Source: Myxococcaceae bacterium
GTDB taxonomy: Bacteria; Myxococcota; Myxococcia; Myxococcales; Myxococcaceae
DNA length: 64,000 bases
Reading direction: 5' to 3'
Assembly: GCA_016793095.1 (NCBI GenBank)
Contig: JAEUJQ010000027.1
Location: 1 to 64,000, forward strand
Position 1 is the stretch's first letter. Each line of letters begins with the position of its first letter. Shown piece by piece: positions 18,278 through 22,408 of the stretch. Under the pieces are notes generated by a model. The model did not search any database, was not told the DNA's origin, and saw only the letters and a list, made by a program, of their open reading frames with translations. The translations under genes and the position numbers were made by a program.

Positions 18278-19942
<1,665 letters not shown>

Positions 19943-20053
19943 GGCGGGTCGAATAGCACGCGGTCGCGGCCGCACGGGAGCGCGTCGTGCGCGAATGTCC
20001 CACCAGGCGGCGCTGCCGAGTCTCTGCTCTACTCACCCTCTCTCCGGTCCTTC

Positions 20054-21112
20054 ATGCCCCCTCCCGTCTCTTCAGCCCGCGCAAAGCCGGTCGTCGCTCC
20101 GAAGGTGGCACAACCCGCCGTGGCAGGTCCGCCCGTCGCGGCCGAGGCTCCGGCGACCGGGTCCTGGCAGCCGGGCGCCGCGAAGCCGAGACCCCGGGTT
20201 CAGCAGCCCCCTGCCCGTCCGGCCATCACCGAACAGCGCGCACCAACGAGCGCGGAGATCGCCCCCGAGGTGCGCCGCGACCTCAGCAGCTTCGAGGCCC
20301 GCAAGCGGCTCGCGACCGAAGCATCCCAGGTCAACCCCATCAGCGCCGACCCGAAGCTCAACAACTTCGACCGCATCTGCGGCGGCGCGGCGGCAGTGAA
20401 CGCCCTCATCCTCAACTCCACGACGCCCGAGGCCGCGAAGCAGAACGCCGAGGCGCTCCGCTCGTCCCTGGGCGCGGCCCAGGTGAAGCTGCCGGACGCT
20501 CTCGACAAGAAGGCCCTCGAGGCCGCGATCGATCACTTCGCGGCCGGCTCGCCCAGCATGAACGACGTCTTCCTCCTCCAGCAGGCCGCCTACGCGGTGG
20601 GCCGCCGCTACGACGAGGCGAACGTCGATGAGGGCCTCAACCCGGCCCAGCTCGGCGGCCTCGTCGCGGACCTGAAGGCGCGCGGCGCGACGCTCGACCC
20701 GAACACGATCTTCTCGCAGTCGAAGGCACACTGGACCGTGACCGTCGGCGACGTCACCGCGAACTCCGATGCCAACGTGACGATCGACTCCGCGTCACGC
20801 TCGCCTGCCAACAAGGGGTGGGGTGGTGACGTGGTCATCCGCCGGGACGGCATCGTCGAAGGCCGCACGCCCACCGTGAAGGACCCCGACTCGAAGACCG
20901 ACCCGAAGGCAGACCTCACGCCCGCCGCCTACTGCAAGAAGCACGGCCTCGAGGCGCCGAAGGCCGACGGCGTTCGCCGTGGCTGGACGTTCGAACTCGC
21001 GCCAGCCAGCACCACCGGCGACCTGCTCACGAAGGGCGACCACCTGCAGCAGCTCAGGCGCGAGACGACGAAGCTGGTGAACGGACAGAAGCCACCCACG
21101 ACCCTGCGCTAA
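20054..21112 (+). CDS. Papain-like fold candidate with disordered Pro/Ala-rich N-terminus
   Basis: Protein of 352 residues from the ATG at 20054. Residues 1-70 are Pro/Ala/Arg-rich and likely disordered; there is no signal peptide. The folded part contains FDRICGGAAAVNALIL with Cys109 at the start of a helix, as in papain-like peptidases (compare C39 or transglutaminase-like CG-x-A-A-x-N), and SKAHWTVTVGDV with His226 at the start of a strand, at a plausible Cys-to-His distance. A cysteine peptidase, amidase or deamidase is therefore possible, but this is inference. The next gene, with another peptidase-like domain, begins 75 bases downstream, so the pair may work together. The longer in-frame upstream extension overlaps the mutase gene and is rejected. 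Confidence 0.7.
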   Translation: MPPPVSSARAKPVVAPKVAQPAVAGPPVAAEAPATGSWQPGAAKPRPRVQQPPARPAITEQRAPTSAEIAPEVRRDLSSFEARKRLATEASQVNPISADPKLNNFDRICGGAAAVNALILNSTTPEAAKQNAEALRSSLGAAQVKLPDALDKKALEAAIDHFAAGSPSMNDVFLLQQAAYAVGRRYDEANVDEGLNPAQLGGLVADLKARGATLDPNTIFSQSKAHWTVTVGDVTANSDANVTIDSASRSPANKGWGGDVVIRRDGIVEGRTPTVKDPDSKTDPKADLTPAAYCKKHGLEAPKADGVRRGWTFELAPASTTGDLLTKGDHLQQLRRETTKLVNGQKPPTTLR

Positions 21113-21174
21113 TCCACCGGAACAACACGCGAAAAAGTCATCTCGCGGCACGCACCTCCCGCCCCGGGATGAGC

Positions 21175-21180
21175 GATAAT
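21175..21180 (+). promoter_or_regulatory. GATAAT -10 element next to a start codon
   Basis: GATAAT matches the -10 consensus at five of six positions and ends 7 bases before the ATG at 21188, implying a leaderless transcript. No good -35 is visible. Confidence 0.35.
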
Positions 21181-21187
21181 CACCCAC

Positions 21188-22408
21188 ATGAACGTGGACG
21201 GAATCCGCCGGGCCCTCACCACCGCGGCGCGTGACGGCAAGGTCGACTCGGCGGACGTCGATCGCATCATGCTGCAGGCCCGTGACGGCGGCGGGCTGTC
21301 GGTGACCGAGCGCGCCACCCTGCTCAAGGCCGCGGACGGCTTCGACGACGCGACGAAGCAGCGCCTGCTGAGCCACCTGGCCGCGATGGGCCAGACGAAC
21401 GCGTGGGTGAACATCGAGGCGAAGGGCCAGCTCGCCAACGTCGAGGGCCGGTACGCGAACCTCACCCTCACAGTACCCGGCCTGTCCGCGCGCGTGGGCC
21501 TCTTCGACAACGCCTTCGCGCTGAAGGGCAAGGCGAAGGCCGACGGGGTGCTGCAGCTCACCATCGACGGCAAGAAGCTGTCGGTGCCCGTTCGCGCCGG
21601 TGAGAGCGCGCAGGCGATCCTCGAGCGCGCGAAGACGCAGCTGCCTGCCACGTTCGCAGGCGTGGTGCTCGGCGGCGATGTGCAGCCGTACGATCCCGCG
21701 GCCTTCTCTGGGCGCGCGGCGCGTAACGGCGAGCAGGCGGCGCACCTGATGCTCTACAAGCCCTCCGCCCTCGGGCTGCAGCCGGGCGAGAAGCCGATGC
21801 GCGTCGTCGTCACTGGCTACGGCGCCTTCATGGGCATCACCGACAACCCCTCGGCGAACATGGCGCAGAAGCTCGCGGAGCGCGGCGTGAAGGGCGCGAT
21901 CGTCGAGTACCGCCGCCTGGACGTCACCCCAGCGGCCGTCGAGCAGTTCATGGGCGAGATGCGGCGCGCGCCACCTGACGTCATCCTCTCGATGGGCGTG
22001 ACCCATGGGCAGGCGCAGGTCGAGGAGCGGCCCGAGAACCTCCTCGGCGCGGCGCCGGACGGCAACAACGTGCAGATGCAGGAGCGCAAGGTGCGGGAGG
22101 GCGGCGCGCACGAGCTGAAGACCGATCTCCCGCTCGAGACGATCGACTGGGCGCTGCAGGGCTTCGGGGCCGACCGGCAGGTCTTCACCAGCCGCTCCGA
22201 CCCGAACTACCAGCCCGATCGCAGCGCGTACCTGTGCAACTTCCTCGGGTACAACCTCGCGGCGGAGTTCGGGGCAGCGCCGAAGACGACGGCGGGCTTC
22301 ATCCACATCACCCCTGAGACGAAGGTGGAGCAGATGGCGGCGGTCCTCGATGCCATCAGCGCGAAGCAGCTCGACGCGCGGCGGACCAGCAACGGGCCGA
22401 CGAGCTGA
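21188..22408 (+). CDS. Two-domain protein with C-terminal pyroglutamyl-peptidase I-like domain
   Basis: Protein of 406 residues. The first 35 residues include an EF-hand-like loop (ARDGKVDSADVDRI), then an unrecognised domain to about residue 190. From residue 204 the protein follows the C15 (pyroglutamyl-peptidase I) fold: VVVTGYGAFMGITDNPS, ILSMGVTHGQAQVEERPE with the candidate Glu280, SAYLCNFLGYN with Cys350, and TAGFIHITPE with His373. The Glu-Cys-His set is thus retained. Family enzymes remove N-terminal pyroglutamate and are normally about 215 residues without extra domains, so the 200-residue N-terminal part is unusual and may direct secretion or bind a target. Probably functionally linked to the papain-like gene before it. 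Confidence 0.8.
   Translation: MNVDGIRRALTTAARDGKVDSADVDRIMLQARDGGGLSVTERATLLKAADGFDDATKQRLLSHLAAMGQTNAWVNIEAKGQLANVEGRYANLTLTVPGLSARVGLFDNAFALKGKAKADGVLQLTIDGKKLSVPVRAGESAQAILERAKTQLPATFAGVVLGGDVQPYDPAAFSGRAARNGEQAAHLMLYKPSALGLQPGEKPMRVVVTGYGAFMGITDNPSANMAQKLAERGVKGAIVEYRRLDVTPAAVEQFMGEMRRAPPDVILSMGVTHGQAQVEERPENLLGAAPDGNNVQMQERKVREGGAHELKTDLPLETIDWALQGFGADRQVFTSRSDPNYQPDRSAYLCNFLGYNLAAEFGAAPKTTAGFIHITPETKVEQMAAVLDAISAKQLDARRTSNGPTS

What the first reader, a model, noticed from the sequence alone, without database searches (positions are those of the whole stretch)
20054..22408. Paired papain-like and pyroglutamyl-peptidase-like proteins with extra N-terminal parts
Two adjacent plus-strand genes encode peptidase-like folds: one with a CGGAAAVN helix and a downstream AHW strand, the other with a C15 Glu-Cys-His set plus a 200-residue N-terminal part with an EF-hand-like loop. 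Neither has a signal peptide. Together they could be effectors used on other cells or an intracellular peptide-processing unit.
Basis: partly seen in the sequence, partly recalled or inferred. Interest (0 to 1): 0.6.

Follow-up and report, generated by a model that had tools for sequence, protein, structure and literature searches.

The report
Peptidase with a shared N-terminal tag
Two neighbouring genes in an uncultured myxobacterium encode a papain-like and a pyroglutamyl-peptidase-like protein; they are not a fixed pair, but the second starts with a 66-residue module that also starts at least a dozen other kinds of enzyme without signal peptides across Myxococcota, possibly a common delivery or docking tag for an undescribed set of effector-like enzymes.

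Summary
The genes are real. P0001 (20054-21112, 352 aa) matches no family. Its model core (helix starting at Cys109, strand starting at His226) is weakly closest to clan CA cysteine proteases, including deubiquitinases; Cys109 and His226 are invariant in six relatives, Asn237 in five. P0002 (21188-22408, 406 aa) is a divergent C15 pyroglutamyl-peptidase with intact Glu279-Cys350-His373. Neither has a signal peptide.

The pairing is weak: P0002 occurs in about 20 genomes, P0001 orthologues in five, adjacent in three. Where P0001 is missing, P0002 can keep its mutase neighbour and promoter-like box. The N-termini are unrelated; the EF-hand idea fails.

The main result lies outside the interval. 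P0002's first 66 residues are a helical, TerB/DUF533-like module at the N-terminus of at least 13 architectures (calpains, elicitor-type transglutaminases, C15, PLD, papain-like and others). Eleven confident genes lie in this genome; 57 of 195 Myxococcota genomes have it. Leave-one-group-out E-values are 1e-10 to 1e-23. Module-rich genomes lack tail-sheath genes (0/21) and mostly Hcp (4/21), arguing against contractile delivery. Best reading: a modular set of effector-like enzymes with a non-Sec N-terminal tag. Export is inferred, not shown.

The parts
20054..21112 (+). gene P0001, 352 aa, papain-like (clan CA type) cysteine hydrolase, no known family
20054..20257 (+). Pro/Ala-rich N-terminal part of P0001 (residues 1-68), predicted disordered; the start MxPP(V/I/L)S is conserved in orthologues
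   Evidence: pLDDT 30-45; alignment A4
20378..20380 (+). Cys109, candidate nucleophile at the start of helix 109-120
   Evidence: invariant in 6 relatives; DSSP of the model
20729..20731 (+). His226, candidate catalytic base at the start of strand 226-231
   Evidence: invariant in 6 relatives; DSSP
20762..20764 (+). Asn237, candidate third residue
   Evidence: invariant in 5 orthologues, not in the sixth, distant relative
19995..20028 (+). conserved promoter-like element ATGTCCCACC-N15-GTCTCTGCT, 59 bases before the P0001 start
   Evidence: 19, 18 and 19 of 19 in P0001 and two orthologues; 17/19 at -64 of an unrelated module gene of the same genome (L068); highest value in 1060 shuffles 15
21188..22408 (+). 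gene P0002, 406 aa: N-terminal module, beta domain, C15 peptidase domain
21188..21385 (+). N-terminal helical module (residues 1-66), shared with at least 12 other architectures
21404..21670 (+). beta domain (residues 73-161), tail-sheath-like
   Evidence: model pLDDT up to 87 here; two phage Mu tail chains Z 6.3-6.7, 22% identity over 72-78 residues; PF17481 E=0.1
21797..22324 (+). Peptidase_C15 domain (residues 204-379)
   Evidence: Pfam E=1.5e-9, 38.6 bits against cut-off 22.7; phmmer E 1e-6 to 8e-6 to four solved pyroglutamyl peptidases
22022..22024 (+). Glu279, catalytic Glu (aligned to Glu81 of the Bacillus enzyme by spacing to Asn284)
22235..22237 (+). Cys350, catalytic nucleophile
22304..22306 (+). 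His373, catalytic His
21175..21180 (+). GATAAT, -10-like box 7 bases before the P0002 ATG, similar at this place in same-genus orthologues; suggests an own, near-leaderless transcript
   Evidence: read from upstream alignments; inference

Best explanation
P0002 is a three-part protein: an N-terminal four-helix module of about 66 residues (TerB/DUF533-like), a beta domain resembling the tail-sheath middle domain, and a C15 pyroglutamyl-peptidase domain with an intact Glu-Cys-His set. The module is a common N-terminal tag of a set of enzymes, at least 13 architectures across Myxococcota and at least 11 genes in this genome, without Sec signals and mostly with a Pro-rich linker between tag and enzyme. 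The most likely mechanism is that the tag directs these hydrolases and protein modifiers out of the cell, or to a delivery apparatus, for use on prey or neighbouring cells. P0002 would there trim N-terminal pyroglutamate. P0001 is a separate papain-like cysteine hydrolase with a disordered N-terminus, an optional neighbour that shares a promoter-like element with one module gene. Shown: domain anatomy, conserved catalytic residues, the shared module and its spread, absence of Sec signals. Inferred: enzyme activity, export, use on other cells, co-regulation.
For: C15 domain and triad. Module on many enzymes: 9 places in this genome with the first profile, 11 confident genes with the improved one, 53 of 147 class genomes, 57 of 195 phylum genomes. 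Leave-one-architecture-out E 2e-10 to 2e-23, at most 16 bits for shuffles. Partners: TGase_elicitor, calpain C2 E 1e-33 to 1e-35, PLD plus CBM20, PG_binding_1, ATLF-like metallopeptidase. Each architecture carries its own clade of module, 12 changes for 13 groups, the minimum: each fusion is old and kept. No hydrophobic N-terminus in 71 proteins. Pyroglutamyl-peptidase, papain-like, transglutaminase and lethal-factor-type peptidase domains were reported as toxin domains of PVC-type and polymorphic toxin systems (PMC3482391).
Against: No immunity, chaperone or secretion gene recurs beside the genes; neighbours are conserved only within an architecture. Contractile machines are excluded as the common vehicle: sheath 0/21 of module-rich genomes, Hcp 4/21, three of them weak. 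T3SS-type export genes occur in 20/21 but also in most module-poor genomes. Some module proteins have only low-complexity or collagen-like tails. Two genera have a C15 domain without the module. Nothing here shows export.
Confidence: 0.42

Rival explanations
1. The module is a cytoplasmic docking or oligomerisation domain (TerB/DUF533-like) and the enzymes work inside the cell in peptide turnover, stress or development. P0002 is then the cell's pyroglutamyl peptidase.
For: No secretion neighbours. P0002 is the only C15 in its genome, and in this class C15 is nearly always this fused form. The module resembles TerB/DUF533 segments. Genes are scattered and each architecture is vertically kept.
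Against: The partner list (calpain, elicitor-type transglutaminase, PLD, lethal-factor-like peptidase, peptidoglycan-binding) reads like effectors rather than housekeeping. Pro-rich linkers and lack of any shared metabolic theme fit delivered enzymes better.
Confidence: 0.38
2. P0001 and P0002 are a functional pair (an operon-encoded processing unit or paired effectors).
For: Adjacent, same strand, about 50-80 bases apart in three genomes of the genus.
Against: Unlinked in G003 and G010; P0001 absent from most genomes with P0002. In G002 and G004 P0002 lies next to the same mutase gene without P0001 and with a similar -10-like box.
Confidence: 0.08
3. P0002's module and beta domain make it a component or cargo of a contractile (tail-like) system.
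For: The middle domain resembles the tail-sheath beta domain: Pfam E=0.1; two phage Mu tail chains Z 6.3-6.7 at 22% identity over 72-78 residues; pyroglutamyl peptidases were listed among PVC toxins.
Against: The genome and all 20 other module-rich genomes lack Phage_sheath_1C. The model is poor overall and Z under 8 may be a common arrangement.
Confidence: 0.06
4. P0001 is a deubiquitinase-like effector aimed at eukaryotes.
For: The highest VIA rows are ZUP1, SnOTU, Josephin-type clippases, PLpro and TssM.
Against: Z is at most 4.5, Foldseek E is at least 0.5; clan CA proteases in general share this core; no sequence match.
Confidence: 0.1

Closest known systems
MEROPS C15 / Pfam PF01470 pyroglutamyl-peptidase I
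   Same: Domain over residues 204-379, Glu-Cys-His set intact, score above the Pfam cut-off
   Different: About 200 extra N-terminal residues, 50.7 bits against the NCBIfam subfamily cut-off of 199, Gln71 of the Bacillus enzyme aligned to Val271 (read)
Clan CA papain-like cysteine proteases (OTU, ZUP1/C78, Josephin, PLpro, C39, C70)
   Same: Cys at the start of a helix, His at the start of a strand, Asn/Asp soon after; the highest weak structural neighbours
   Different: No sequence match to any Pfam, NCBIfam or PDB family
TerB / DUF533 helical domains
   Same: Parts of the module match DUF533 at 7e-6 (L088) and above the cut-off in one member
   Different: P0002's own module gives no match; placed as an N-terminal tag on many enzymes
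MIX / RIX / WHIX marker domains of T6SS effectors (PMC10435454, PMC12135965; found)
   Same: One N-terminal marker on many different catalytic domains, no Sec signal
   Different: Module-rich genomes mostly lack Hcp; no gene linkage to a secretion system; secretion not shown
Polymorphic and PVC-type toxin systems (PMC3482391)
   Same: Same catalytic repertoire, pyroglutamyl-peptidase included
   Different: No PVC metallopeptidase, no repeats, no immunity genes, no sheath in these genomes
Needleless T3SS* and Kil predation machinery of Myxococcus xanthus (PMC12075869)
   Same: Predatory lineage with presumed but unidentified T3SS* effectors
   Different: Myxococcus-like genera keep export genes but hold few or no module genes

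Membership tests
Peptidase family C15 (P0002) | Significant match to PF01470 | tested here: met
   38.6 bits against cut-off 22.7, E=1.5e-9
Peptidase family C15 (P0002) | Catalytic Glu, Cys, His | tested here: met
   E279, C350, H373 invariant in 16 aligned homologues and two lone domains
Peptidase family C15 (P0002) | pGlu pocket residues (Phe10, Phe13, Gln71 in the Bacillus enzyme) | tested here: inconclusive
   Y211, F214, V271 in the alignment; an archaeal enzyme also lacks Gln71 there
Peptidase family C15 (P0002) | Pyroglutamyl-peptidase I equivalog level | tested here: not met
   50.7 bits against 199 and 40 against 201.75
Peptidase family C15 (P0002) | Hydrolysis of pGlu substrates | not testable with these tools
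   needs an enzyme assay
Clan CA papain-like (P0001) | Cys at a helix start, His at a strand start, conserved | tested here: met
   C109 and H226 invariant, DSSP helix 109-120 and strand 226-231
Clan CA papain-like (P0001) | Overall papain-like fold | tested here: inconclusive
   Foldseek best E 0.55; VIA Z up to 4.5 with clan CA proteases on top
MEROPS C39 (P0001) | Sequence match to C39 models | tested here: not met
   no Pfam or NCBIfam match up to E=10; a shared fold is not excluded
EF-hand proteins (P0002) | Canonical Ca-binding loop | tested here: not met
   no EF-hand match; loop residues not conserved
T6SS effectors | Encoded in genomes with Hcp | tested here: not met
   Hcp in 4 of 21 module-rich genomes; two weak Hcp matches exist in this genome
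eCIS/PVC cargo | Genome encodes a tail sheath | tested here: not met
   0 of 21 module-rich genomes, this one included
T3SS-type substrates | Genome encodes an export apparatus (FHIPEP) | tested here: met
   20 of 21, three copies here; not specific
Polymorphic toxins | Adjacent immunity gene | tested here: inconclusive
   no recurrent small neighbour among called genes; small ORFs under 70 aa not examined
TerB/DUF533 | Pfam match of the module | tested here: inconclusive
   above the cut-off in one member, E 7e-6 in another, none for P0002

The most novel reading that the evidence does not exclude
The module is the export signal of an undescribed, non-contractile delivery route in Myxococcota, for instance the unidentified effectors of the needleless T3SS*/Kil predation machinery or of the flagellar export gate, and P0002 is one member of a family-wide arsenal of injected proteases and protein modifiers.
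Probability: 0.2. Interest if true: 0.85.

Novelty: new variant of a known kind. Interest (0 to 1): 0.55.

Why it matters
A short sequence marker that picks out dozens of effector-like enzymes in predatory or formerly predatory bacteria would give a direct handle on a question left open in the literature read here: which proteins the myxobacterial contact-killing machines deliver (PMC12075869). It would also add a C15 domain with a fused N-terminal tag to a peptidase family usually seen as a lone domain.

Tried and rejected
Pfam, NCBIfam, PADLOC and PDB sequence searches for P0001: nothing. EF-hand reading: rejected. A fixed pair or operon: rejected. T6SS and contractile delivery: rejected as a common vehicle. 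Module-rich genomes have three or more FHIPEP genes more often (16/21 against 7/126); the extra copy examined here lies in a flagellar cluster, so the association probably reflects motile lineages and is confounded by relatedness. Conserved neighbours as delivery or immunity genes: only syntenic neighbours within one architecture. AlphaFold of P0002 from three close sequences was poor (pLDDT 50), so the geometry of its triad was not tested. Foldseek with P0001: no significant match. First multiple alignments were wrong because minus-strand loci were not turned; redone. Paper searches for the module under DUF533/TerB gave nothing relevant.

Full report
Genes. The window lies in an 8.8 Mb draft genome (G000, contig C55); relatives with names are Myxococcaceae/Archangiaceae metagenome assemblies. 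P0001 is 20054-21112 and P0002 is 21188-22408, both plus strand. Orthologues start at the same ATGs. The minus-strand gene upstream (18278-19975) reads as a methylmalonyl-CoA mutase large subunit (own knowledge of the sequence, not tested).

P0002. Residues 204-379 match Peptidase_C15 (38.6 bits, cut-off 22.7) and four solved pyroglutamyl peptidases at E 1e-6 to 8e-6. Spacing to the conserved Asn284 puts Glu279 on the catalytic Glu; Glu279, Cys350 and His373 are invariant in all 16 aligned homologues and in two lone C15 domains. It scores far below the NCBIfam equivalog level, so it is a divergent branch. In the class, 22 of 147 genomes have any C15 and nearly all are this fused form. The model is poor (pLDDT 50), but its beta domain, the best part, finds two phage Mu tail chains (9khy, 9ki1) at Z 6.3-6.7 with 22% identity over 72-78 residues, in line with a weak Phage_sheath_domII match (E=0.1). 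I read those chains as the 495-residue tail sheath protein (own knowledge).

P0001. No family matches. Six relatives keep Cys109 and His226; five keep Asn237. The model (pLDDT 66, core 80-95) has a disordered first 68 residues, a helix starting at Cys109 and a strand starting at His226. Foldseek finds nothing (best E 0.55). The second look by VIA puts clan CA cysteine proteases on top (ZUP1, an OTU, Josephin clippases, PLpro, TssM) at Z 3-4.5. That is weak, but together with the conserved residues it makes a papain-like hydrolase likely.

Pairing. Among 99 relatives P0002 is found in about 20 genomes and P0001 in five; a sixth, distant P0001 relative came with a profile. They are adjacent in G000, G001 and G006 and lie on different contigs in G003 and G010. 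In G002 and G004 the sequence before P0002 is the start of the same mutase gene as in the window, without P0001, and a GATAAT-like box lies directly before the P0002 ATG in these and in the genomes with P0001. P0001 is therefore an optional insertion, and P0002 probably has its own promoter.

The module. A search with P0002 also hit the first 48 residues of unrelated 500-residue proteins, which proved to be elicitor-type transglutaminases (PF16683, E=1e-12). A profile of the first 66 residues found 9 places in this genome and up to 10 in its congeners. The proteins, read out one by one, carry at their C-termini two types of calpain domain (E 1e-33 to 1e-35), PLD plus CBM20, a peptidoglycan-binding domain plus an unknown, a weak AvrRpt2-like papain match (E=0.17), several unknown families and a lethal-factor-type metallopeptidase (E=1e-6). 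When each architecture was left out of the profile in turn, its modules were still found at E 2e-10 to 2e-23 (search space 10,000), with shuffled sequences at 16 bits or less. With an improved profile there are 11 confident genes in this genome, 53 of 147 class genomes with at least one and 57 of 195 in the phylum, other classes included. A tree of the modules needs 12 label changes for 13 architectures, the minimum possible: every fusion is old, with no sign of recent shuffling, unlike classical polymorphic toxins. Few columns make this tree weak in detail.

Is it exported? None of 71 proteins has a hydrophobic N-terminal stretch; the module starts within a few residues of the start codon in nearly all, and many have a Pro-rich linker after it. 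Tail-sheath genes are absent from all 21 module-rich genomes and present in 79 of the other 126; Hcp is in 4 of 21 against 64 of 126. FHIPEP export genes are in 20 of 21, but are common everywhere. Module-rich genomes have a third copy more often, which in this genome lies in a flagellar cluster (read from N-terminal sequences). These counts share phylogeny and are not independent. Neighbouring genes give no clue. So contractile delivery is unlikely, and the vehicle, if any, is unknown.

Regulation. P0001 and two orthologues share ATGTCCCACC-N15-GTCTCTGCT about 60 bases before the start; a collagen-like module gene of this genome has 17 of 19 positions at the same spacing and nearly the same distance, while 1060 shuffles reach 15 at most. 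An 8-mer, GACAATGT, precedes both transglutaminase and calpain module genes (8 of 67 upstream regions, 0.12 expected), but orthologues are not independent, so this amounts to two families. Suggestive only; P0001 may belong to the same regulon.

Precedent. Zhang and colleagues (PMC3482391) listed pyroglutamyl-peptidase, papain-like, transglutaminase and lethal-factor-like domains among toxin domains of polymorphic and PVC-type systems. The effectors of the Myxococcus needleless T3SS*/Kil machinery are described only as potential or presumed (PMC12075869). The enzymes are thus of known kinds; the shared module and its spread are what I found no description of, in a limited search of open papers.

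Verdict. Peptidase identities: P0002 well supported, P0001 likely. Pair: not supported. Effector use: plausible, favoured slightly over an intracellular role, unproven.

Noticed in passing
G000:C30:123440, C6:150959, C90:328369 and 209436, C65:217331, C42:23723, C46:59250, C68:6391, C51:266445, C76:290831 (loci L065-L072, L148, L149): Ten further genes of this genome with the same N-terminal module: transglutaminase-elicitor (2), calpain (2), a 700-residue unknown with GYDGHSNW (2), collagen-like tail (2), and two unknowns.
   Followed up: yes
L072, L074, L080, L089, L090, L095, L107, L111, L164-L166, L173, L179: A conserved family of about 700 residues with GYDGHSNW and NLCVGK motifs behind the module, no Pfam or NCBIfam match; the spacing of His and Cys could fit a caspase-like peptidase.
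   Followed up: partly
L150:1809-3356, L151:2869-3876: In two genomes of another genus the module (in tandem in L150) precedes a lethal-factor-type metallopeptidase domain (PF07737).
   Followed up: partly
upstream of L071, L084, L091 (calpain) and L065, L073, L078, L085, L106 (transglutaminase): Shared 8-mer GACAATGT, within a palindrome CGACAATGTCG before the calpain genes: a possible common regulator site.
   Followed up: partly
G000:C39:2400-22300 (L146): A flagellar gene cluster (FlhA, FlhB, FliM/N, MotB-like) in this Myxococcaceae-type genome; module-rich relatives tend to have this third FHIPEP gene.
   Followed up: partly
L063 (G050:C585): The distant P0001 relative lies beside a gene with an HETGH metallopeptidase motif.
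   Followed up: no
L106: A transglutaminase protein with two copies of the module in a row, separated by a Pro-rich stretch.
   Followed up: no
L167, L168, L171, L175: Short proteins of other Myxococcota classes made of the module plus a Gly/Ser/Pro-rich tail only.
   Followed up: no
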